From: Microbotryomycetes sp. JL201
Taxonomy: Eukaryota; Basidiomycota; Microbotryomycetes
DNA length: 64,000 nucleotides
Assembly (NCBI GenBank): GCA_033819885.1
Contig: JAQYUZ010000005.1
Span: 124,001-188,000, forward strand
Reading direction: 5' to 3'
Below, in pieces: positions 1,723 through 62,707 of the stretch. The translations under genes and the position numbers were made by a program. The notes beneath the pieces are model-generated. The model was not told the origin of the DNA and searched no databases. It saw only the letters and a program-made list of their open reading frames with translations. The number at the start of each line of letters is the position of its first letter. The stretch's first letter is position 1.

Positions 1723-2635
1723 ATGACCAGCTTACTATTACCAGGTGACGCTCTGCCGTCACCGTCCGGCAGCAACGTTCGATTGCACATTGGCCCCGGT
1801 CTTGTGCAGCAGCAGCAACTTCCTACTGCAGCGGACAAAGGGAAGCAAAAACAGCAAGACGTGAACGATGACGATCGTCCGACTGTGACTGCGACGCGCG
1901 CTGGCCTGCTCGGGCACCATTTGGACGCAAAGAGCGACAAGTGGTGGATTGAGAACGAGATGAGACGCGTGAGCGTGCTATTCCGGTATAGGTAATGTTT
2001 CTCACGATGCGATATTGACTGTTCCGCTCTGTACGCAGTATGTGCCCCATCCGCCGGAGCCCGTCATCGGAATCGTCGTAGCCAGACACGCAGAAGGTTT
2101 CAGGGTCGACATTGGGTCGTCACAAGCTGCCAGCTTGGACGCACTAGCATTTGAAGGTGCAACAAAACGCAACAAGCCGAACCTCAAGGTGCGTTGCACC
2201 TTTGCGACTCGACATGGCGGAGAGCCTTGCCACTGACTTGCCTCCCTGCGTGCTCAAAATCAGGTCGGATCAGTAGTTTACGCACATCTACTTGCCACGC
2301 CGCCTTTCTCGGAACCAGAAATATCTTGCGTTGACTCTACGACTCAGAAAGCGTCTGGGTTTGGCGAACTGACAGGCGGGTTTGTCGTTCGAGGAGTCGA
2401 GCTCAACCGGTGTCGAGCGTGAGTCATTGCAGCTCGTCACTGAGGAATGCCGTTTAACGTTTGAGTGCTCCCGCCACACAGCTTGCTGGCACCCAAGAAC
2501 CCGATCCTGCCAAAGCTTGGCGCGAAATGTCCTTTCGAAGTGGCTGTAGGAATGAACGGGCGAGTGTGGATCAAGACGGGAGACGGAGACGAGGAGCATT
2601 TGATAGACATGGTCCGGGAGATCAAAGGTCGGTAG
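1723..2635 (+). CDS. RRP40: Exosome complex cap subunit RRP40 (EXOSC3-like)
   Basis: Rrp40 is one of the three S1/KH cap proteins of the RNA exosome and threads RNA into the ring in nucleus and cytoplasm. Seen: ATG at 1723, an N-terminal domain, an S1 region (YVPHPPEPVIGIVVARHAEG, then KVGSVVYAHLL) and a KH-type end (LLAPKNPILPKLG, FEVAVGMNGRVWIKTG). Three introns join in frame; one gives NRCR-ALLAPKNP. Total is about 230 residues, near the yeast length of 240. The 3' end is uncertain: the straightforward frame stops at 2635 after REIKGR, but family members usually carry a further C-terminal helix, so another intron and small exon before about 2800 are possible. It lies tandem with the protease downstream. 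Confidence 0.85.
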
Positions 2636-2924
2636 ATGAGCCTCGCATATGTGCAATTATTGCTTAGAGGCCTGAGCACCGCCAAGGTTGCGAGGTTCCG
2701 TGTCCGCCGCGCATCCGGTCCGGCGAGTGTACGAAGGTTTGCAATATTCGGAGGTACGGCAGCGTTTCAAAGAGCGTGGCAGTATGTCTCTCGGGAACTG
2801 CATGTTTCCCGGCTCGGTTTGTGCATCGCCTGTTGCTGCACTGCCCCACCGAGTCTCCGACTGAGTCGAAGAGCGAATTCCTTGGCGCGCGCTCTCTCTC
2901 TCTGATCCACCAGACGCGCCCGCG

Positions 2925-5366
2925 ATGGTGGGCTCGCTCGCCTCGTTGTACCTCCTTGCTGCTGTTGCGGCGAGTGTGCATGCTGCCGATCCCGCGTATC
3001 TCGATCCAGAGTGAGTTGCACGTCTGGTGCCACCGATCAGACCGATCGATTCCACCGTCATAGACGGCACGGCCCCAATCATCGCGCCTTGCAGCTCACT
3101 CAAAGTATAAAGTATGGGCGAGACTATGAACGCTGACCGAGTGTCATGAATGCACAAACAGCCGCGTAACACGCGCACTCGAACGTGCTCAATCGCGTCA
3201 CCAGTCCGCCCTCAATAACTACGCCTACAACAAAGTGAACCACCCAGAATTGTTCGACCAACATGGCACACTCGTCAAGATTGCGTCCGTGATTGAGCAG
3301 ACAGCGTTGAAGCGAAGGCAGAAGCGCAGATCCGTCGTCGACTTTGTCAAGCGTCAGTCGGGCGGTGGATCAGCTCCACAAGGAGCGGTGACCCTCAACG
3401 ACTACTTGTGAGCAGATCGCACGGGTCTTTGGCCTATGCAAGGTCTGACTGAATCCCGACCCGCAGCTCCGAACCGCTCGACATCATGTGAGGCCGCACA
3501 CAGCGTCTCAAAACAGTGTGGGGCAACACCTAATTTTCCAGCAATCTCCGATAGGATCTATGGTAACGTTTCTATTGGCACACCGGCTCAGGTCTTCCCT
3601 TTGCTGTTTGACACCGGGTCGTAAGTTCGCTCAAAGTGAGACACTCTGGCCTGGTCTGACACTCATTTCGGGTTCGACGTTCCAGCTCGGATTTGTGGGT
3701 GTACGAAGCTGGAACAGGTGCACTGAGCGTCCCAGAATGGGATGCCAGCCAGTCGTCGACCGCCGTGACCTCGCCTACGATCCCATGGTGAGCGCAATCT
3801 ACAAGATCAAGGTACGGCGAGCCGTAGGCTGACAACCGCGAGTCTTGCAGGTCCATTCAGTACGGTCGCGGCGAGCAGCAAGGTTATTTGAACCAGGATG
3901 TCGTCGAGCTCGGAGGTTACACTGCAGACACGGTCTTTGCTGCCGCCACTACGCTGAACGAGGCAAGTTCCTGTATCGCCAAGCCACCCGTCAAGGATGA
4001 ACTGACCGAGTTGATGTAGGCTTTCACACCGTACCCCATTTCTGGTCTGTTTGGACTTGGCTTTGGTGTGATAGCATCCTCGGGATACGTACCGTGGTTC
4101 GAGAGGTAGGCGGAGAATCAAGGCGTCGCATAGACTTCGGCTGACGATCCCAACGCTCGCAGACTCCTCAATAGCACCGAGCTCCAAAATCCGCTCTTTT
4201 CGATCTATCTCATTCGCGCTGCCGACGTGACGGACGAGGTCGAAGGAAGTATCCCCGGCGCACAATTGTGCGTCGGTTGCATTGACGAATCCAAATATAC
4301 AGGAGACATGTATGTTCGATGCTGCGCATAGCCTTTGAGTATCTCGCTGACTTTTCTGAACATGCAGCAATTGGGTTCCGGTCAACTCCGAAGCCTTTTG
4401 GACGGTGCCAATGGACGGCATCAATTTCAACGGCTCTGTCATTCCTGGCACGTCAATGAACGCTGCGATCGACTCTGGCACATCGTCAGTAACCTGAACC
4501 TTACGTACCAATGTTGCAAAAGGCTAATCTGAACGAGTGTACAGACTGATCCAGATCCCAGTCGCTGCCGCTCAGGCGTTCTATTCTGTCCTCGGCGGTG
4601 TACAATCCGATCGTGGAGACGGAACTTGGATCATTCCTTGTGATGCGCCGATTGGATCAATCGGCTTCCAATTTCAAGGCGTCAACTACGAGATCCCACC
4701 TCAAGACATTTTGAGGGCAAGGTCGCGCGACCGCACGAGCTGTTTGTTGGCGATCGCAGGTGTTGACAATCAAGACGCTTACGGTAACAGTGTGGCCATT
4801 GTAGGTCTTGCATCACGCTTCCTGAAGGCAATTTGCTTGATTTTGACGATTCGCCACTAGGTCGGCGACGTATTTTTGAAAAACGCGTACACGGTATACA
4901 CTTATTCGTACCAAGGCGCTCCGGCCGTCGGATTCGCTCGCTCCATCATTGCCGGAACTTGGAACGACACAACCAGCGGTACCGAATCGGGCCAGTTTTC
5001 TATTCCGACGGCGACAGGCACCGTCAGTGGTGTGCCTCCTCGACCTACAAGCCAACGACTTGATTCGTCTAGGTCGGTCGGATTGACCAGCGGCGCTTTC
5101 ACGCGAAGGTGAGCATTCTCGAGCCTGGTCCCACATACGTGTGCTTGATGACTCATCCCGTCTTTTGGATATCCAGCAGCGGCGCCGCTCCCACGGCCAA
5201 CACTCGAACATCGGCCACCGGAACGCCCAGTCAATCATCCGCGCCCAACAATGGCGGCGGAGGCGGTAACCCAACGTCCGCTGCACGACTCTCGACGCCA
5301 ATGAGTCTGTCAAGCGTAGGACTCGGATTGTTCGCAGCCGTTTTGAGCGCGTTCTTGACGCTCTGA
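2925..5366 (+). CDS. Secreted, GPI-anchored pepsin-type aspartic protease (A1 family)
   Basis: A cell-surface endopeptidase of the yapsin/pepsin type. Seen: ATG at 2925 begins a signal peptide (LASLYLLAAVAASVHA). A propeptide follows, ending in dibasic sites (KRRQKRRS, FVKRQ) that suit kexin-type processing. The mature domain has YGNVSIGTPAQVFPLLFDTG split by an intron before SDLWVYEAG (first catalytic Asp), the flap tyrosine in IQYGRGEQQGY, and the second catalytic Asp in AAIDSGTS. A Ser/Thr/Gly-rich tail ends in a hydrophobic segment (VGLGLFAAVLSAFLTL), which reads as a GPI-attachment signal. About ten short introns splice in frame. Substrate is unknown; roles in wall protein processing are typical for the family. 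This is a normal, complete cellular gene. Confidence 0.9.
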
Positions 5367-5639
5367 TCGGACTATAGTTGCTTGTCCTTGATCGAATGTC
5401 TGTCGATACTACTGTCAACTCTCTGATTTAGATGCAGAGGTATTAAACTGGCTCACATTATCTTTATTCTATTGGATATCGATTTGTAAAACACTATACC
5501 GAGGTACACTCTTCTCAGACCCGTCTCGAGCAGTGACTAGGGACGAAATGCGAACGAAATATTCTGATGCAAAAGCATGATACGTCTACAGATCGATCTA
5601 CATTTTCGCCTTCCTAGCTTAGAACCCAGTAGCTTTTTC

Positions 5640-8096
5640 TTACTCGTCTCCGTCCTCGTCCAAAAAGTCTCTGTACACTTGATTGTTTGTCTCTTCGACG
5701 AACGGGTATCCTAAATTTTCCAACCCTTGATCAAACTCTTTCGACCTAGTCGGATCAACTTGAATGCCCGCCAAAATCTTGCCCACATCTGTCACGTACA
5801 AACCATCGCACACGTATAATGTCAGCAGCCATCACGCGTCCGAAAATCCGACATCAACACTAGACTGACCTCCACCTTGATTTCGGTAATGAAACAAACT
5901 AATGTTGAACTTCATCTTTTCAACCTCTTCCAAAAACTTTCTCAAAGCTCCAGGTCGTTCTGGAAATTCAAACCGAAAGACTCTTTCGTTTTCGACAGTT
6001 TTTCGTCCACCGACAAGGTACCTGGCGTGAGATTTCGCCATTTCATTATCTGAAATGTCGAGTGGTGACATTCCTTTGTTGGACAAGGTTGTCATGATCG
6101 TCGACAGTTCTTGTTGACGAAGTTGATGCGGAGTCGGTATGGGAGTTGACGCTCCGGACGTGGTCGGACTGTTGCCGGCGGTAGATTGAGGGACGACGGG
6201 TGCGACGCGAGGAGTAGAGAGATAGAAAGACAAAAAGATGAATGCGCGTTTGGGCGACGAGTACCGGTACACGAATTCGGTCACAGCTCGAGGATGGATG
6301 ACCGAGTGGAGGGCGAGGAAACTGGGTGTGGAAGCTGTGGTGTCAGGTCCGTCCCAAGAGCCATGAAGGGTGGTCACTCACGCTCCCTGTTGCTCTGGAA
6401 TGATGACGCGCAACATGGCTTCCTTGCCTTCACCCAACTCTGCTCGATCAGAGATGAACCGCAATCTCGAAAAATTGAGGTTGGCGCCAGACACGATCGA
6501 AATGAACCGCCGACCTTTGCCGACAAGGTTATTCTGGACAATATACTTTTTCATACCTGCAACAGCAAGCGCGCCTGAAGGCTCAGGAGCTGAACGTGTG
6601 TCTGTGGCCATACAACGTTAACGATTCCGCCGAGGTGATCGAGACGAAACCGAGGCGACTTACCTTCAAAGACGTCTTTGATGGCAGCGCACAGCTCATC
6701 GTTGCTGACGAGCACAATCTCGTCCACCAATTGAGCACACAATCGCACTGTTTCTTCGCCCATCTGCCTCACCGCCGTTCCATCCGCAAACAAGCCAACT
6801 TCGGTGAGCGTGATGCGTTGGCCAGCTCGCAAAGTTTGCGCGAGACAATCGGCATCATACGTCTCGACTCCGATGACTTTGACGTGAGGCGGTGCGACCG
6901 CCTTGACGTACGCTGCCACGCCGGCCAAGAATCCGCCTCCTCCGACCGGAACAAAGACGGCGTCGAGTTTGGAGACGTCTGTCTGTCTGAGCATTTCCAC
7001 GCCGCACGTTCCTTGTCCAGCAATAACGTACGGATCGTCGAAAGGTGGGATGATGGTCAGGCCGTGCACTTTGGCCAGCCTTGCGCATTCGCGCTTTGCC
7101 TCGTCAAAGTCTGCGCCGTGCAAGACGACTTTGGCGCCGAGCCTGTCGACGTTTGTGTACTTGATGGATGGTGTATTGAGAGGCATGACGATGGTGCATG
7201 CGATGCCGAGTTCTCTGCCAGAGATGGCGACTCCTTGCGCGTGGTTACCTTTTGTCGACAAGTGGTTGCCACTTGAGATGTCAGCTGGTCGTGTCGTTCT
7301 CGCTCCTTTGGCCAACGCGAACTGACCGGCGGAGCAAGCGACGACGCCTCGCCATCTTTCTTCCTCTGTCAGTTGCGACATCATGTTGTACGCGCCTCTG
7401 ATTTTGAACGAAAAGACTGGCGTCAGATCTTCGCGCTTGAAGAGGACTTGTGCGCCAAGTCGGTTCGACAACTAATATTGACAGGGATATGTCAGTACCA
7501 TGGAATGCCAGTTTGCGCCAGTTTCCAGCGTCGTTGCGCATTGCGACGGCCCAAGATTCGAGTCAAACCGTACCGAGACGGCTGGAGTGAGTGGAGTGCC
7601 TGATGCGGGCAGGATAGAGTAGACGTTGCTGGTGAGTGACATTGTGAGGTAGTTTGGGGTGCCGTCTGCCTGCATCAGGTGCGCTGCAGGTCGCCGCGGG
7701 CGCTCGTCAGTGCGAAGCCAAGCCAAGGCGCGATCCAGTCAATCACGCACGAGGCACGCGCGTGTATTGCTGCGTGTTGGGCTCAAACACCGGTCTGTCG
7801 ATGCGGGTGCCGTCTGGCAGCAGGATTGTGCCGCGCTGTGTGCCGTCTGCGGCCTTTGTCGGAGTCGTCGACTGGCGCAATTTGGGATGCATCGCATGAG
7901 CCTGGCCATTGTTGATCGCCGGCTTGGCGTTCTCCGTCTCTGCGATCAGACCCGTGACAGAGGGCGCCATGTGCGTCATGTCGACCGGTGGCGGAGCGGA
8001 CACAACCGCGGGCGGTCGATTGGCTGCTGCGCACGACGACGCGCTCGGGCCCCTCCGCAAGACGCTCTCGCCTTGCGCTTGTGCCATTCTGACCAT
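5640..8096 (-). CDS. ILV1: Threonine deaminase (biosynthetic threonine dehydratase)
   Basis: Converts L-threonine to 2-oxobutanoate with PLP, the first step of isoleucine synthesis, normally in mitochondria. Seen: [19 protein letters not shown] contains the PLP-lysine region, followed by [14 protein letters not shown], the glycine loop [17 protein letters not shown] and [10 protein letters not shown]. The C-terminal half has tandem ACT-like regulatory segments ([17 protein letters not shown]). The last exon ends in a run of acidic residues at 5640. The N-terminus from the ATG at 8096 (alternative 8087) is Arg/Ser/Ala rich and may be a short mitochondrial presequence. About six introns. The intron at 7249-7326 is 78 bases long and stop-free in frame (see findings). 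It is head to head with NSE3, with 9 bases between start codons. Confidence 0.93.
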
Positions 8097-8105
8097 TCCC
8101 CGGCC

Positions 8106-9804
8106 ATGCCGGTACGCTGACGCTCAACGGTATACTGTCTGACACACTGACTTGCTTCACGACAGCGCGCCCGAGCATCCGCCGCAGCCGCCGCTGCCGC
8201 GTCAAGCGACGCTGAAACAGACTACAGCGACCAGAGCGGCGCACAGCGCACCCAGGCAAGCAAGCAGAAAAGGGGAAAGGGCAAGCAGAAGAAGCGCAGC
8301 CGCGCAGACGCCGGCTCTGCGGGTGACAGCGACCGTTCTGACGGCGGCGAGGACGAGGACGAGGCTCGAGGCGGACGCGGCAAGCGCAGAGCCCTGCTAG
8401 AAGAGGTGAGGCTTGCTCGGCGATGCGAGAAGCCTGTGACTAGGCACGCTGCGCGCTTTTCGCACTGGTTCTGCGCCTGCGAGCACGGAGTTTGCTAACG
8501 CGGACCGACGCGTCGCGACGCCTGTCCATCCAAAACCTCTACACAGGAACGTCAGGAGCTCGTCGCAGCGATGACGAGGCATGTCCTCTTTACAGAACAC
8601 ACCCGCAAGGTGCACACTCGCTCAAACATGATTGCAGCCGGTCAGTGCCTCGCATCGGCATCGGTTCGAGAAAGAATTGACTCCTCTCTCCTCTTGTACC
8701 AGTCCTGACCAAACCAGAGCACAAGGGCTTGTTCAACCATCTCATTCCACTCGTACAAGATCAGCTGAGGGACGTATTCGGCATGGAACTCGTGCCCCTG
8801 CGCGCGAAAGAGAATCAGAACAAGAGTCTGTCCGAACAGGCAAATGAGCCTTCGCCCAGCGGCCTGTCTGACGTTGCTTTGCCTGGACAGGCGCAGCCAA
8901 AACTTATGCTCTACGGTCTACATTGCCCGCAGAGCTCATGCGTGCAGCGGTGACACAGACGTTTGCCGACCTCAGCTCTGCCCAAGACACCGGCGCAGAC
9001 CTCCGCAAGCTCAAGATTTTCGGAACAGAGTTGGCTGACTGGCACGAGGACGGAGACTTGTTGCCAACTGACAGACCTGGCACTGCACCGGTGCGCGACG
9101 TCAAGCGCGAAGAGGGAGCCGCTTATGGCATTCTCGGCGTCGTATTGGCCTTGTGCCTCGTTAACGGCAAGAGCATATCGGATGGCGAGTCTTGGAGGAG
9201 ACCATTGCGATCAAGTGGACGGGCCCAAGCTTACCCGCTCTCGATGTGTTTCGCAGACCAGCTCGTGACATATTTGCGTCGACTGTCTTTGACGCCATCG
9301 ACTGTCATTCCATTGTCGATCAGTTCGACGCATAGGGACAATATGACTCTGGCCAAGTATATTGATCAGCTCGTTCAACAAGGCTACCTAGAAAAGTCGG
9401 CCTCGTCGACGGCGGCTCAGACGGGCAAGACGAGCGGACGAGTGCCATCAACTCAACGGACGCAGCGTGCCAGTGGCGTCGAGGCCGGTGACCCTGGCAT
9501 CGAGTACAGGTGGGGCGCAAGGAGTGAAGTCGAGTTTGGAGAATTGGGCATTGCCCATTTCATTCAGTACATTTACGAGACGGGTCAGAATGTCCAAGTC
9601 GTTCACGAAGACGAAGACCAAGAGGATGATGGCGAACAAGTGGGTGGACAGCAGCAGCAGGAGCATCATCATCAACAGGCTGCGAGCCGCGACCGCTTGA
9701 TCAAGGAGATTGCGAGAGCAGCCGGAGTCAAAAGGTTGCAGTCAGCGTACGAAGACGAAGCGCGACAACAGAGCGATGACCAAGGAGCGATGGCGGAGGA
9801 CTGA
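8106..9804 (+). CDS. NSE3: SMC5-SMC6 complex subunit NSE3 (MAGE homology domain)
   Basis: Nse3 is the MAGE-family winged-helix subunit that pairs with Nse1 and Nse4 and binds DNA in the SMC5/6 genome-stability complex. Seen: a two-codon first exon (ATG CCG) splices into a basic and acidic low-complexity N-terminus. The MAGE domain follows: MTRHVLFTEHTRKVHTRSNM, then LRDVFGMELVPLRAKENQNK. An intron (about 8833-8892) restores the frame to SAAKTYALRSTLPAELM. Later segments are GAAYGILGVVLALCLVNGKS, the winged-helix region LAKYIDQLVQQGYLEK, and YRWGARSEVEFGELGIAHFI. The C-terminus is Gln/His/acid rich. Four introns are needed. It shares a very short divergent region with ILV1. Family assignment is strong; the tiny first exon is inferred. 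Confidence 0.87.
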
Positions 9805-43715: not shown

Positions 43716-46700
43716 ATGCTTCACACAACAGCACTTGCCGTCTTGGCGCTCGCTGGCTCGAGCGCCGCACACATGTCCATTTGGACTCGTAAGTGCTGAC
43801 CTGCGCATTCTGTCGTGTTTCACGTTGGTTCAAACCCTGACAAGCCTTGATACATTTGTAGGCTCAATGTGGGGCGTCGGATGGAAAGCTACAGGCGCAA
43901 ATGAAGATTTCGAGTTTCTGGGTGAGCCTGGCCATCAACGGAACGGAACAGGACATAGTTCGCTGACCACACTTGCAACGCAACAGGCGGTGATCCATAC
44001 GCTCCTCTCGGACCCAATTGGGCGCAGGACGACTGGTGGTTCCGTGGACCTGCCGTTAGAGCTCTGCCGCCGCTCGACGGCGAGATTACCCACTTGCCCG
44101 CTGGCGGATCGGTCACCTTTGAAATCGCCTGCCACGTCGCGTGGACGTCTTACGGGGTCAGCACCACCACTCCCGGCTCTCTGCTTGATGCTTGCCCCGG
44201 CAACCCTGGCTCGTACCATTCGGGTGACCCGAACGCCGCAGACATTGATCGCTCATTGGTGTCTGGTTGCGCGCTTGGCATTGCCGATGTCGACGACATC
44301 TCTGCAGTCACCATGGACAACCTTGCTATTTTCTCTGTACAGCAAAAGTGCGTCCAGCAAAAATTGACATCGTTCAGCGTGCCAGCTCGCATGCCTGCGT
44401 GCTCGTCGCCCAACGGCTGCATTTGCGGCTGGTTCTGGCTCGCAAACAACGGAACTGCAAACTTCTACATGACGGCCTTCAGATGCGACGTCACGGGCGC
44501 GCCAACCGACGCCACACCGATCGCGCCTCCGGTTGATCCAACCTGGTGTGATCCTTCTGCCCTGGCTGCCGGTACCTGCCAGCCTCAAGGTGGAGCCAAG
44601 CGCCCGATTTACGCTTACAACACCCCGACGAACGTTCCGTGGAAAGGCAACTACGACCGACCTGGCTACCATGACAATTGGTCGTTCCGCGATGGCGCGC
44701 AGAACGACATCTTCTTGCCTGCTAACTACACGAAGCCTTCAACGGTCCCAACTTCGACCGTTCCGACACCCACATCGTCCGCAGCACCCTTCAGCTCGAC
44801 AGCTGTCAACTTGGCTCTGTCGGCAAGCGTGGCTGCTTCTTCGGAGAATACGGCAACCGGACAGACTGCAGCGAAGGCAATCGATGGCAAACTCGGAGGA
44901 TATCCCCTCAACACCACGAACGAGGTACGCGCACAGGGCTTGTTGTTGCTTCGGGTTTGTCTGAGCTGATTTTTGCGGATTCCTGAACCGAAGTGGGCCA
45001 CGATGGGTCAACGAGAAGGTGCATGGCTCCGCCTTGCCTGGTCGGCGCCTCAGACCTTCAACCAGATTGTGTTGTACGATCGTCCAAATCTCGATGATCG
45101 CATCTTTACGAGCTCGCTCGTGTGCGACGACGGCATCTACACTAACGTCGGCGCATTGAAAAACGACGGCTCTGCAACGGTCGTCAACCTCGTAGCGACT
45201 GGTGTCACTTGCTCAACTGTCACGTTCTACATCAACTCGGTGTCAGCGAACACTACAAACACCGGTTTGTCAGAGATCCAGGTCTATATGCAGTCACCAA
45301 GCGCGCCTGTTGCTACTGCCACATCGGCTTTGACTCAGCCTGTCGCCTCCGCCACTTCTGCTCTCGTCAGCGCCGTCTCGTCGATTGTGAGCAACGTGTT
45401 GCCGCTTCCTACCGCCATTCTGCCACCTCCTGTCAACTTGGCCCTGGTTGCCAATGTCTTGGGCTCGTCTTCTGCTCCTGGATCGAGCCCCGCTCTCGCG
45501 AATGACGGCAACCCCGCCACAGAGGTCAGTTTTCCCAGGTGCTTCTACTTCCGGTGACAGTGCGCTGATACGCTGCTCGCAGTGGGTTACAAACGGCGAG
45601 AAAACAAACGCTCAATATTACCTGACGTGGCCGACCGCCCAAACTTTCAACCAGATGGTTCTGTACGACCGGGCCAGCTTGACCGATCAGATCACGCTGA
45701 TCAACTTGTTGTGCTCCGATGGCTCGGGAGTCAATGTCGGTCCTCTCAACAATGATGGCTCTGCGACTGTGATCCAGCTGCCGACCGTGTCGTGCTCGGC
45801 CGTGTTGCTTACCGTCCTGGGCGTTTCGGACACAACGACGGCAGTTGGTTTGGCAGATGTTCAGATCTACATGCAGACGAATCCTGCAGCCACGACCGCG
45901 CCTGCCCCAGCCACCACGAGTGCTCCTGCCTCGTCATCGGTCGTGTCGTCGGCAGCGATGTCGTCTGCTGCTGCTTCGTCCTTCTCGAGCGCCGTCTCGT
46001 CCTTTTCGTCGTCTATCGCTGCCTCTTCAGCTGCCGCATCTTCGTCTGCCGCTGCTTCCTCCTCTGCCGCATCCTCTTCGGCCGCGTCGTCGGTGGCGCC
46101 GTCGTCGTCGTCAGCTCTGCCGCCGTCCTCAGTCGCCTCATCGAGCGTCGCTGCCTCGTCGTCTGTTTCGACCTCAACGGTCGTTTCTGCCGCTCAGGCG
46201 AGTGCCGTGACACCCTCATCAAAGCCTTCAAGCTCGGGTCCAGTGTCGACCGCAATGTCGAGCTCGGTTCCTTCTTCGTCGTCTGCGGCGCCACCTCCTG
46301 TGTCGACGGTCAACTTGGCCCGCTCGGCCAGGCTTAGCGTTTCTTCGTACACATATGGCTATGACCCGAGTCGCGCCGTTGACGGAACTTTGACCGGCGT
46401 AAGCACGAGCCGTCCTATGACGTGTCGCTAGCAAGGTTGCTGACCTCGGGGTTTCAACTTGCAGTGGATCTCGAACAGACAAAAAGCTGGCGCATGGCTC
46501 AAGGCCGTCTGGACAACACCGCAACGATTCAACCAGATCGTCCTGTACGGTCTTGCCAACAACCGAGGCACCGTCACTGGCGCGACGTTGACGTTCGCGG
46601 ATGGATCGGTCGTCAAACTCGGCACGATCAAGAGTGGCGTTGCCAATATCGTTCAGCTGCCTCTGATAACTACAACTTCGGTGACGTTCACTGTCACGAG

Positions 46701-46950
46701 CGTTTCGTCGACGATGCAGAGCGCCGGTATCGCAGAGATCCAAGCTGTCGTCGCCGACTCTACAAAGTTTACGAACGTGCAAACGCCAGTCAAGCCTACA
46801 ACGAAGCGTGCCACGACAACAGTGGCACGAGCGAGGTCTCCCCGTCGGTTGTGGCAAGACGCTATCGAGTTGCTGAGGCGAGCGACGAGCACTCCGGCAG
46901 AACATCACCGTCACGCTCGCGATTTTGCGACGGCCGTGCCAGCCCAATGA
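43716..46950 (+). CDS. Secreted AA14-type lytic polysaccharide monooxygenase with three discoidin-like modules
   Basis: LPMOs oxidatively cleave polysaccharides with copper; characterised AA14 members act on recalcitrant xylan. Seen: the signal peptide MLHTTALAVLALAGSSAA ends directly before His19 (HMSIWTR-SMWGVGW), so the mature protein starts with the His of the copper brace. Family motifs are WAQDDWWFRGPAVRALPP, LPAGGSVTFEIACHVAW, PGNPGSYHSGD (probable second copper His), IFSVQQKCVQQKLTSFSVPA, CICGWFWLANNG with NFYMTAFRC (axial Tyr), and NWSFRDGAQNDIF. Then come three repeats of a discoidin/DUF7402-like module (about 44800-45290, 45430-45880 and 46310-46780), each with an intron before a conserved Trp and an FNQIVLYDR-like motif. 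A Ser/Ala linker (45890-46300) lies before the third. Five introns. The Arg-rich last 45 residues are odd and the 3' end may differ. Confidence 0.88.
45890..46300 (+). repeat. Serine/alanine low-complexity linker coding repeat
   Basis: Within the AA14 gene, this stretch encodes a run of Ser and Ala with some Pro, Val and Thr, written with mixed TCG/TCC/TCT/GCC codons rather than one repeated unit. This is a flexible, probably O-glycosylated linker separating the third module from the rest. Confidence 0.8.
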
Positions 46951-59453: not shown

Positions 59454-62400
59454 TTAGATCCTGCCTAGACCGAGACTGGCCAAACTTCCAATACCAGATC
59501 CCATTCCAACGGCAACGTCCAGCCTCCTGACGTTGTCTTCGGCATGAAGTTGTGCGAGTCTTTGTTTCGTTTCGTCAAGTGACAAGACTGGCTCGGTCGA
59601 AGCGATCGTCGAAGCCATGGCGGCCGTCGTTGAAGGAGCGATGAACGAGCTTGATTGTCCTGGCGAATGCGGGTGTACCGGCAAGGAGGCAGGAGCGTGT
59701 ACAAGGCTCGTCCCAGGGAGTTGAGAAACGGCATGAGGCGGAGTAGGTAAGTTCGAGTGCGCGTCGACGAAATTGTGTCGGTCTCGGTTCATCAAGTTGT
59801 TGTAATCTGGCAGCACATAGTCTGAACCCGTCAACAAATGCGAGCTGCTCGGCACTGGCGAGTCTAGCAAGTTGGTGCGGGCCCACGTCGGCTCTGCAAG
59901 GAAAGGCGACGACGACACTGGCCCACCTTGCCGAGGCGAAGCAGGGGCGGACGAGATACGCTGGCTCTCGTACAACTGATGTCGTCTCGCAGCTGCCAGT
60001 GATGATGGAGCGGTTGGTGGCAGAGGAAAGTTGGCAAGCGCAGACAAGCCGGGTCCTGCAGACGGCCCAAATCTTTCAGGCGACGATGCGCCTGGATCCA
60101 AGTTTACTGGCAGACAAGGCGGGCGTAAGTCGGTTGCAGAGGACACTGAGCTTGGTTTTGGAGGTGGCGGCATTGTACCCAACGAGCTCGAGACCTGCGC
60201 GTTAGCTTGAGGTGGAATCCGCCCTTGCGTGGGCAATGGCGACGGCATCGACACGGGTGTAGGTAGGCCTGTCGGTGGAGACGCTTGCGAGCTGACAGGA
60301 CTCTGTTGATATGAACCATTCGAGTTCTGTCGAGTGCGTTGCATGCCGAGCGGAAGCAAGACCGAGAAGTTCGACATCAAGCTCGACAAGACCGCTACAG
60401 CATTTTCTGCATTGCCGCCATCAGCTTGGTCCAGCGAATAGCGAATTGCACAATGCTCACCCGTGTTGGCGTTCTTGAAATAGCGCAACCGCTGCAGCAA
60501 GACTTCGACCTCTTGTTTCATCTGATTCGCGGCCTGGTCCATCTCTTTTGTCTTGTAGACGGCAACTTGCCTTATCAAAACACGCCCAGCGATGGTCCAG
60601 CACTGCTCAATCAAGTGTCAACATGAAGGTCTTCCTCGGCATCGCGGTGCTGATCGCTCGCGCGACCTACAAATGTCAGGAACGGCAACAGTTCGGCTGC
60701 CACGCCGGCATTGTTCTTGTTACCGAGGTTGCTCAGAATTCGACGCGCAGCGTCCGTGCACAAGACAAGCGAGACATCGCTCAAGGACGAGCCGCACAGA
60801 GGCTCATGTGCCAGGATCCTGGCGACGTGTGGCATCGACGCAATAAAAGGTGTGTACTTGTTCTCTGAATGATTTGCGAGAAACTTTGCCGTCGATCGCA
60901 GGTATTCGCCAATATTGCGCTCGAGCGCCAGGAATGCTGGTGTCGCGCGAGCTTGTTCAGCGGTCTTTGGGAGATCACGACCTTGATTGAAGCGAGGCAG
61001 TTCTGCAGATGCGCGAGTCAGTCTAGAATCGGGTCGAGACGAGCTACCGATCAGCTTACTCCTGCTCGTCATGGCCGCCCGGCCGAGCAAGACTGCTGCT
61101 TTAAAGAATAATTGCAAGCCGCCGACGAGATGAGGCGGATGTGACAGGAAGAATTCGGAGCTGCCCAAATGCATGTGACGCCAATCGTCTGGATCGTCCG
61201 ACCGGGCGGGTGAAGCCGACGGCAGCAATGTACCGACATCTTCGTCCTGGATCATCATTGCCCATCCCGTGTTGGCAGCTGCAAAACGTTCGCCGACATA
61301 CGTCCACCAAAATGCCATTCTGCGATCTGTGACTTCGCGATGACTCTTCGGCAACCTGACGACGTCGATCGGCACGTTCGTGTAGGCACAATACTCCCAG
61401 TCGTATGTTGGCGAGTACACTGGCACTTTGTTGAGCCGGAGAGCGACAGCCACACGTGCGCCAATACCCGTGAGGTGCCAAATGTCCTGGAAACGACAAA
61501 TGCGGTACGAATAGATCGACAGCAAGACGACGGCCTGCACAATGTCGAAGAAGCGGTCGCATGACAATGCACCATTGTCTGCGGCAGTCTGTACATAAGA
61601 AAGGAGCAAGGTCAGTTGACGTTTTCGGTCAGAAGGGCCGGATGCACCTTGGCGCGGGTAGCGTGCCACTGGGCGAGCGAAACCCCGGGAGCCATGTCGT
61701 CTGGTAGTTTGTGGTCCAACAGCACATCTTCACCATGGAGGTCCACAACCAGAGCAATCATGGCATGGAGCAAGGCCGCATGAGGATAGTCTCCGTGAGT
61801 CGGCGGATTGTCTAGGCGCGTGCGGAGTGCTGTCGGATCAAACATGGACGTGCACGGATGCTTTGAAAGCATGTACAGGTCGACAATGCGCTTGACGGTT
61901 ATCGGTGGTGGCAGGTCGGGTGAGTAGCCGGTCGCGAGCAGTGAGCCACCGAATGAAGCAAAGTCTGCCACTGGCGGCGACTTGTACTCTGACACGAGCG
62001 ACGTTGACGGTGTCGAGCTGTGCACCGAACTTGAGCCGGGAGATGCAACTGACGAGTATGCGGTGGGGCTGACGCCGGCCGACACATGATGTAGAGGAGG
62101 CATTGCCGGCCTTGGGTACGCAGACGCAGACGCAGACGGCGGCGGCGCCAAACTCGGTCGCCAATTTGCGAGTTGGGCTTCGAGCTCTGTGATCCTGCTT
62201 TCGAGTGTTTGGATTTGCTTGCGACTTACGCGCCTGACTTTTTCGCCTGGTTCGCGGTCTTCGTACACGCAGTCGAGTCCGGCCGGATCGTCGCTAGGTG
62301 AGTGTGTGCATGCGATCGCGTCAGCCTCGCTCGGCGTCGCCCTGGGGCAGTGAGCGTACGCGGTCACGTTTACAGTGTCATGTCGCCTTCGTTTGACGCA

Positions 62401-62707
62401 AGCGCTGCATGCCGGTCGCACGCCGTCGCACTTTAATTTGCGCGTCCTGCACGGCAAGCACGCTTTGCCGCGCTCGATCGACTCGCTCCATAGAGGGTGC
62501 CCTGCAGCACAAGCCAAGCGCAAGCCATGTCAGCGTGCGCGCACTTGGCGGCGCTGCGAGTACGGCGCCGTGCCAACTCGGCGCAGACCGAATCGCGGGC
62601 CCGGCGCACACGAGCCCGCTGCGGGTGCTGCAGCTGCACGACAACGAGCAGGCACGGCAGTTTGTTAGCGTACCTCGCTTCCTGGGCGGACTGTCGGCGT
62701 CGGCCAT
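59454..62707 (-). CDS. Zn2Cys6 transcription factor with fungal-specific TF domain
   Basis: Nuclear regulator of unknown targets. Seen: the ATG at 62707 gives MADADSPPRKRG, spliced to HPLWSESIERGKACLPCRTR, KLKCDGVRPACSAC and VKRR. The sixth zinc Cys lies further on, and an in-frame insert there (TVNVTAYAHCPRA) makes the last loop unusually long unless an intron is hidden. A coiled coil follows (QIQTLESRITELEAQLANWR). The central TF domain has ALLHAMIALVVDLHGEDVLL, QDIWHLTGIGARVAVALRLN and DRRMAFWWTYVGERFAAANT. The last exon, after 60614, has TMPPPPKPSSVSSATDL and other Pro/Ser-rich segments, ending LASLGLGRI at 59454. Four or so introns, about 960 residues. Confidence 0.86.

What the first reader, a model, noticed from the sequence alone, without database searches (positions are those of the whole stretch)
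43716..46950. AA14 LPMO fused to three repeated discoidin-like modules
The first half matches AA14 copper oxygenases: mature N-terminal His, PGSYHSG, FSVPA, CICGWFW and DGAQNDIF motifs. It is followed by three copies of a module sharing an intron before a conserved Trp and an FNQ(I/M)VLY motif, split by a long Ser/Ala linker. Characterised AA14 enzymes are mostly single-domain, so three putative glycan-binding modules imply a different or multivalent substrate, possibly a cell wall rather than free xylan.
Basis: partly seen in the sequence, partly recalled or inferred. Interest (0 to 1): 0.75.

Follow-up and report, generated by a model that had tools for sequence, protein, structure and literature searches.

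The report
Fungal AA14 oxygenase with sugar-binding-type modules
A fungus encodes a secreted-looking copper enzyme of the AA14 family joined to three sugar-binding-type modules, and the same modules elsewhere sit mostly on enzymes predicted to remove acetyl groups from amino sugars, which hints that this puzzling enzyme family may sometimes work on microbial rather than plant polysaccharides.

Summary
A six-exon gene (43716-46950, 967 aa) encodes an AA14 LPMO (Pfam E 1.7e-64; 40% identical to PcAA14B over 250 aligned pairs; copper histidines and axial tyrosine align) followed by three DUF7402 modules (E 1.5e-101), each with a phase-0 intron directly before its conserved Trp. A bacterial relative of the module models as a CBM32-type fold.

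New here is the module's company. The 13 DUF7402 modules detected in this genome lie in four genes: two AA14s and two PIG-L-type deacetylases. Of 25 bacterial DUF7402 proteins fetched, 13 have PIG-L, 5 GH31 and none an LPMO. The conserved Trp and the DRPN Arg align with Trp1359 and Arg1393, which hold GalNAc in CpGH31 CBM32-2; module 3 has lost the Arg. GH10 and GH11 were not detected; a GH114 was.

Best reading: an AA14 aimed at a microbial, possibly amino-sugar-containing, polysaccharide rather than plant xylan. The architecture is solid; the substrate is inference. New variant of a known kind.

The parts
43716..46950 (+). Whole AA14-DUF7402x3 gene (start codon to stop, six exons, 967 aa)
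   Evidence: splice model; domains
43716..43769 (+). Signal-peptide-like N-terminus, residues 1-18
   Evidence: sequence; followed by His19; no predictor run
43770..44723 (+). AA14 LPMO domain, residues 19-290, interrupted by introns 43789-43861 and 43922-43986; copper ligands H19 (43770-43772), H122 (44217-44219), axial Y205 (44466-44468)
   Evidence: PF22810 E 1.7e-64; 5NO7 E 6.6e-36, H1/H99/Y176 aligned by counting along the alignment; 39.6% identity over 250 aligned pairs
44808..45287 (+). DUF7402 module 1, residues 319-455; intron 44925-44993 just before W358; YDRPN motif with R387
   Evidence: PF24135 E 2.9e-48 for the module alone
45288..45434 (+). Linker 1, residues 456-504
45435..45870 (+). 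DUF7402 module 2, residues 505-630; intron 45525-45582 just before W535; YDRAS with R564
   Evidence: PF24135 E 7.9e-32
45871..46308 (+). Ser/Ala-rich linker, residues 631-776, 66% Ser+Ala
46309..46749 (+). DUF7402 module 3, residues 777-901; intron 46399-46464 just before W807; DRPN motif lost (YGLAN)
   Evidence: PF24135 E 6.6e-30
46750..46950 (+). Basic C-terminal tail (residues 902-967) and stop; outside matched domains, 3' end not verified
   Evidence: third-position GC 0.58 (residues 906-967) against 0.62-0.67 in the rest of the gene

Best explanation
This is a secreted, copper-dependent AA14 lytic polysaccharide monooxygenase carrying three CBM32-type DUF7402 modules, two behind the catalytic domain and one beyond a long Ser/Ala linker. 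Shown by sequence: the AA14 domain with its His-brace residues, the three modules, the module family shared with PIG-L-type deacetylases in the same genome and in bacteria, and the CBM32 fold of a bacterial relative. Inferred: secretion; that the modules bind a polysaccharide through the conserved Trp (stacking) and, in modules 1 and 2, the DRPN Arg, and hold the oxygenase on an insoluble surface by avidity. Inferred further: because the same module serves enzymes predicted to act on N-acetyl amino sugars, the target is a microbial wall or exopolysaccharide (fungal self wall, or a GalNAc/GlcN-containing matrix) rather than plant xylan, where the AA14 would cut chains that the PIG-L enzymes deacetylate.
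For: Domains. DUF7402 is found in 16 stretches of the genome (a lower bound), which I assign to 13 modules in four genes, two AA14 and two PIG-L. Both PIG-L domains keep AHADDD and DHADH, and a frame just upstream of each reads like a signal peptide (that junction was not modelled). Five of the 13 modules share the phase-0 intron just before Trp: all three here and two in one PIG-L gene. The four AA14 modules form one group among the PIG-L modules (support 90/88). Bacterial relatives: 13 of 25 PIG-L, 5 of 25 GH31, 0 of 25 with an LPMO. Best solved relative by profile: 4UAP, E 7e-5, which is CBM32-2 bound to GalNAc (PMC5291390 passages); its Trp1359 and Arg1393 align with the conserved Trp (12 of 13 fungal, 45 of 45 bacterial modules) and the DRPN Arg (10 of 13, 45 of 45). 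Fold: model of a bacterial module, pLDDT 95.9, best PDB hits CBM32. GH10 and GH11 not detected, with bacterial controls ringing; a GH114 is present.
Against: No ligand or product was measured. The CBM32 structures nearest in fold bind galactose, GalNAc, LacNAc, fucose, mannuronate or chitosan, so fold does not fix the ligand. The two of five GH31 partners compared with the PDB are closest to an entry labelled alpha-xylosidase, not to a GalNAc enzyme. Other 4UAP ligand residues (Lys1453, Thr1457, Asn1401) are not clearly kept in the profile alignment. Module 3 lost the Arg. PIG-L substrate classes are broad (recalled). The genome searches read exon by exon: the PIG-L search found only these two genes and not the housekeeping GPI-pathway enzyme that a fungus should have (recalled), so absences are weak. 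AA9 absence had no positive control, other xylanase families were not searched, and Spherulin4/GH135 was not found, without a control. Arg conservation in bacteria is partly built in, because the fetch used a VLYDRP pattern. Module 1 is as close to a PIG-L module (54%) and to bacterial modules (51%) as to module 2 (50%), so the single-capture history is not firm.
Confidence: 0.42

Rival explanations
1. A plant-cell-wall LPMO: the AA14 domain acts on xylan-coated cellulose or xyloglucan, and the modules merely bind galactose-containing side chains of plant polysaccharides.
For: Characterised AA14s were reported on cellulose-associated xylan or on cellulose and xyloglucan (PMC10885436 passages); CBM32-type folds often bind galactose.
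Against: GH10 and GH11 xylanases not detected, nor AA9 (no control). PcAA14A's xylan activity was not reproduced by Tuveng et al., as reported in PMC10885436. The commonest partner of the module is PIG-L (13 of 25).
Confidence: 0.25
2. The modules are a wall-display device, not substrate targeting: they tether the enzyme to the fungus's own wall by binding wall glycans, with the Ser/Ala linker (probably O-glycosylated) as a spacer.
For: The same layout, modules then a long Ser/Ala linker then a divergent terminal module, occurs in both PIG-L genes. The three terminal modules lost the DRPN Arg, and the two PIG-L ones group together at 100/99.
Against: Actinobacterial PIG-L proteins carry the same modules without a fungal wall; the C-terminus here does not read like a GPI-anchor signal (by eye).
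Confidence: 0.22
3. The copper protein is not a polysaccharide oxygenase at all (copper handling or redox signalling), or the modules are rarely translated because retaining intron 3 truncates the protein.
For: AA14 activity has been disputed; intron 3 retention gives a stop at 44969.
Against: The aligned His-brace and Tyr positions, 40% identity to PcAA14B, and two more AA14-type genes in the genome.
Confidence: 0.08

Closest known systems
PcAA14B of Pycnoporus coccineus (PDB 5NO7; the name behind the entry is recalled)
   Same: AA14 catalytic domain, 39.6% identity over 250 aligned pairs, H1/H99/Y176 equivalents present
   Different: Here the domain is followed by three DUF7402 modules; the disordered tails described for AA14 follow a lone catalytic module (PMC8615602 passages)
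Actinobacterial PIG-L deacetylases with 2-3 DUF7402 modules (e.g. L027 Amnibacterium, L044 Blastococcus)
   Same: Same module family, with tandem modules behind a catalytic domain
   Different: Catalytic domain is PIG-L, not an LPMO; the window gene's relation to them is through the modules only. The fungal PIG-L paralogues are 35-42% identical to seven of the 13 bacterial PIG-L proteins over about 255 aa; the other six gave no hit at E 1e-3
CBM32-2 of CpGH31 (PDB 4UAP, GalNAc complex)
   Same: Best solved relative by profile, same fold class, Trp1359 and Arg1393 positions kept in modules 1 and 2
   Different: E only 7e-5, rmsd about 4 A to the bacterial model, other ligand residues not clearly kept; ligand of DUF7402 untested
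AA14 paralogue on contig C1 (L021)
   Same: AA14 domain plus DUF7402
   Different: One module, Thr-rich linkers and a Cys-rich segment in between; no Ser/Ala linker
Agd3 (CE18 with CBM87) and Ega3 (GH114) of galactosaminogalactan metabolism
   Same: A fungal deacetylase carrying a sugar-binding module, described in PMC8224951 passages; this genome has a GH114
   Different: Different deacetylase and module families, no LPMO; no GAG gene cluster shown here

Membership tests
AA14 LPMO | Match to the AA14 profile over the catalytic domain | tested here: met
   PF22810 218.8 bits against cut-off 27, residues 3-339
AA14 LPMO | N-terminal His of the mature protein, second His and axial Tyr | tested here: met
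   H19, H122, Y205 align with H1, H99, Y176 of 5NO7 (that these are the ligands is recalled); signal cleavage before H19 not tested with a predictor
AA14 LPMO | Oxidative cleavage of a polysaccharide | not testable with these tools
   needs purified enzyme
DUF7402 (PF24135) | Profile match over the full module | tested here: met
   three stretches, whole-protein 336.2 bits; 163.8, 110.6 and 104.4 bits one by one
CBM32 / F5_F8 type C | Beta-sandwich discoidin fold | tested here: met
   PF00754 53.2 bits for the whole protein against cut-off 28.2; module 1 alone 29.7, modules 2 and 3 alone 17.7 and 25, below it. The model of a bacterial module 40-44% identical to the window modules matches CBM32 structures. 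The window's own modules were not folded
CBM32 / F5_F8 type C | Demonstrated carbohydrate binding | not testable with these tools
   only alignment of Trp and Arg with 4UAP ligand residues
GalNAc-binding CBM32-2-like module | Ligand residues Trp1359, Arg1393, Asp1351, Asp1356, Lys1453, Thr1457, Asn1401 | tested here: inconclusive
   Trp kept in all three window modules and Arg in modules 1 and 2 only; the others not clearly kept
PIG-L deacetylase (for the two paralogues, not the window gene) | AHxDD and HxxH motifs and profile match | tested here: met
   PF02585 36.7 and 43.8 bits over cut-off 28.2; AHADDD and DHADH in both

The most novel reading that the evidence does not exclude
DUF7402-bearing AA14s are a functionally distinct branch of the family: LPMOs for an amino-sugar-containing microbial polysaccharide (a galactosaminogalactan-like or partly deacetylated GlcNAc polymer, on the fungus itself or on neighbours), working with PIG-L deacetylases that carry the same module. 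The module came to AA14 from the PIG-L side, itself shared with Actinobacteria.
Probability: 0.25. Interest if true: 0.8.

Novelty: new variant of a known kind. Interest (0 to 1): 0.55.

Why it matters
What AA14 enzymes oxidise is disputed (PMC10885436 passages). This gene ties an AA14 domain to a module with a traceable partner set, PIG-L deacetylases in the same genome and in bacteria. That turns the substrate question into a short list that can be tested with isolated modules. It also proposes a function for DUF7402, which no paper in the searched library names.

Tried and rejected
Considered and rejected: (1) that module 3 shares its origin with the terminal modules of the PIG-L proteins. 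The tree puts all four AA14 modules together (90/88) and the two PIG-L terminal modules apart (100/99). (2) That the bacterial GH31 partners are GalNAc enzymes: for the two of five compared, the best PDB relative is labelled alpha-xylosidase (7WJ9). That 7WJ9 is an alpha-1,3-glucosidase is recalled only. (3) A CAZyme cluster around the gene: 10 long frames of the window gave a tRNA synthetase, a PALP enzyme, a fungal transcription-factor domain and seven without a match. One search was given 10 of the 20 frames listed, and intron-rich short-exon genes would be missed. (4) A single-module search of the PDB gave nothing useful, nor did the PIG-L domain. (5) Spherulin4/GH135 and AA9 in the genome: nothing, but no control rang. 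(6) No fungal collection is on hand, so the spread of AA14-DUF7402 among fungi, the species and an AA14 tree could not be tested. Whether databases already list AA14-DUF7402 proteins was not checked; absence in print rests (DUF7402: 0 papers; AA14 with discoidin: 2, unrelated by title; PIG-L with galactose-binding, deacetylase, secreted and fungi: 0) and on the listings. Passages of PMC10154629 and the listings added little beyond the papers cited.

Full report
The gene. Splicing five GT-AG introns (58 to 73 bases) between 43716 and 46950 gives a single open frame of 967 residues. The frame starts with a signal-like sequence and His19 follows it. Pfam finds LPMO_AA14 (PF22810, E 1.7e-64, 218.8 bits against a cut-off of 27) and three DUF7402 stretches (PF24135, E 1.5e-101), plus F5/8 type C above its cut-off for the whole protein. 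Against solved structures the first 296 residues match only 5NO7 (E 6.6e-36; PcAA14B, name recalled) at a meaningful E-value, at 39.6% identity over 250 aligned pairs. H19, H122 and Y205 align with H1, H99 and Y176 of that enzyme by counting along the printed alignment; that these are its copper ligands is recalled.

The modules. Modules 1-3 cover residues 319-455, 505-630 and 777-901. Module 3 comes after a 146-residue linker that is 66% Ser+Ala. The introns before W358, W535 and W807 are all phase 0 and directly before the Trp codon. Modules 1 and 2 share 50% identity and module 3 shares 38-40% with them. That reads YDRPN in module 1, YDRAS in module 2 and YGLAN in module 3.

The rest of the genome. 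The window lies in a 17.15 Mb genome of 92 contigs without held relatives. Four AA14 stretches lie on three contigs: the window gene, C1 and C6. The C1 gene models as AA14, Thr-rich linkers, a Cys-rich segment and one DUF7402; the C6 gene, a weak model, as AA14 without a module. DUF7402 occurs in 16 stretches, a lower bound by the tool's own note, all of which I assign to 13 modules in four genes. These are two AA14 genes and two genes on C3 whose catalytic domain is PIG-L. One PIG-L gene has five modules and the other four. A frame just upstream of each PIG-L domain reads like a signal peptide, but that junction was not modelled. Both keep AHADDD and DHADH, and both have a long Ser/Ala linker before the last module. 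Five of the 13 modules have the phase-0 intron just before the Trp: three in the window gene and two in one PIG-L gene. The other eight do not. This shared intron suggests common descent within fungi rather than separate captures.

Relatedness of modules. A tree of the 13 modules puts the four AA14 modules in one group (90/88) among the PIG-L modules and the two terminal PIG-L modules together (100/99); only 2 of 10 inner branches are strongly supported. The simplest reading is one capture of the module by an AA14 gene, from the PIG-L side, followed by duplication. The direction depends on the root, which was set at the midpoint only. Against a firm history, module 1 is 54% identical to a PIG-L module and up to 51% to bacterial ones, no further than the 50% to module 2.

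Bacterial relatives. One scan of the bacterial and archaeal collection matched 49 stretches by pattern, of which 25 passed as relatives. All 25 proteins were scanned with Pfam at E 1e-4. PIG-L with DUF7402: 13 of 25 (L027-L031, L033-L037, L042, L044, L048). GH31: 5 of 25 (L038, L039, L041, L049, L050). The other seven are L032 (cut by its contig end), L040, L043, L046, L047 and L051 (no catalytic family over its cut-off) and L045 (glycosidase-like domains, ricin lectin, dockerin). None has an LPMO. The PIG-L domains of the two fungal proteins match seven of the 13 at 35-42% identity over about 255 aa, all from Actinobacteria by their record titles; the other six gave no hit at E 1e-3. Exchange between Actinobacteria and fungi is possible but no tree with fungal references could be built.

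Fold and ligand residues. A model of a bacterial module (L027, alignment of 45 sequences; 40-44% identical to the window modules) has mean pLDDT 95.9. Its best PDB matches are CBM32 modules bound to galactose, mannuronate, GalNAc or Tn antigen, fucose-binding lectins, galactose oxidase and chitosan-binding modules, with an APC/C subunit among them too. By profile the best solved relative of the fungal modules is 4UAP (E 7e-5), which PMC5291390 gives as CpGH31 CBM32-2 with GalNAc (passages read). The crystal construct 1323-1470 plus four vector residues (my inference) makes the listed 152 residues, so chain position equals residue number minus 1318. The conserved DUF7402 Trp then falls on Trp1359, which stacks on GalNAc, and the DRPN Arg on Arg1393, which contacts O3, O4 and the acetamido group. 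The Trp is kept in 12 of 13 fungal and 45 of 45 complete bacterial modules, the Arg in 10 of 13 and 45 of 45. Three of 48 bacterial modules that did not span the profile were left out of that count. The fetch used a VLYDRP pattern, so the bacterial Arg count is biased upward. The three fungal modules without Arg are exactly the terminal ones behind the Ser/Ala linkers. The other GalNAc contacts of 4UAP are not clearly kept.

Plant or microbial target. GH10 and GH11 xylanases were not detected, with bacterial controls ringing in 4 and 1 of 14 genomes. AA9 was not detected, without a control. GH18 chitinase-family stretches number six and one secreted-looking GH114 gene is present (E 1.3e-62). 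GH114 Ega3 targets the GalN region of galactosaminogalactan according to PMC8224951 (passages read), which also cites GalNAc/GalN exopolysaccharide in the basidiomycete Trichosporon asahii. Spherulin4 was not detected, without a control. These searches read genes exon by exon. The PIG-L search found only the two module-bearing genes and not the housekeeping GPI-pathway enzyme a fungus should have (recalled), so absence is weak for intron-rich genes.

Literature. PMC8615602 (passages) states that in AA14s with a disordered tail, the tail follows a lone catalytic module in 100% of cases, and that 72% of AA14s have a C-terminal region of unknown type; the present architecture may hide among those. 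PMC10885436 (passages) says no AA14 carries a CBM1 and reports that Tuveng et al. could not detect the proposed PcAA14A activity on cellulose-associated xylan; the Tuveng paper itself was not held. No held paper names DUF7402.

Verdict. The architecture is a new variant of a known enzyme family. The substrate reading, a microbial and possibly amino-sugar polymer, rests on association and two aligned residues and is the main thing to test.

Noticed in passing
L022 (C3:119001-129000, about 2384-7631) and L023 (C3:170001-180000, minus strand, about 3900-8840): Two PIG-L-type deacetylase genes with five and four DUF7402 modules and very long Ser/Ala linkers, about 50 kb apart on one contig, 35-42% identical to actinobacterial proteins in the PIG-L domain.
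   Followed up: partly
L021 about 2673-4902 (C1): Second AA14 gene with one DUF7402 and a Cys-rich segment between Thr-rich linkers that has no Pfam match over a cut-off.
   Followed up: partly
L024 about 3004-4579 (C6): Third, more diverged AA14 without DUF7402 and with a Ser/Thr/Pro tail; the exon model is weak.
   Followed up: partly
L058 1336-2227 (around C9:152397-152960): Secreted-looking GH114 (endo-alpha-1,4-galactosaminidase family) gene, E 1.3e-62.
   Followed up: partly
window 46309-46749; terminal modules in L022 and L023: The three modules behind Ser/Ala linkers all lost the DRPN Arg, while the other ten fungal modules keep it.
   Followed up: partly
L038, L039, L041, L049, L050: Bacterial GH31 proteins ending in one DUF7402; nearest PDB entry of the two that were searched (L038, L049) is 7WJ9, labelled alpha-xylosidase.
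   Followed up: partly
window 60614-61729, minus strand: Fungal_trans transcription-factor domain, with a frame at 61615-62529 that reads like its Zn-Cys region.
   Followed up: no
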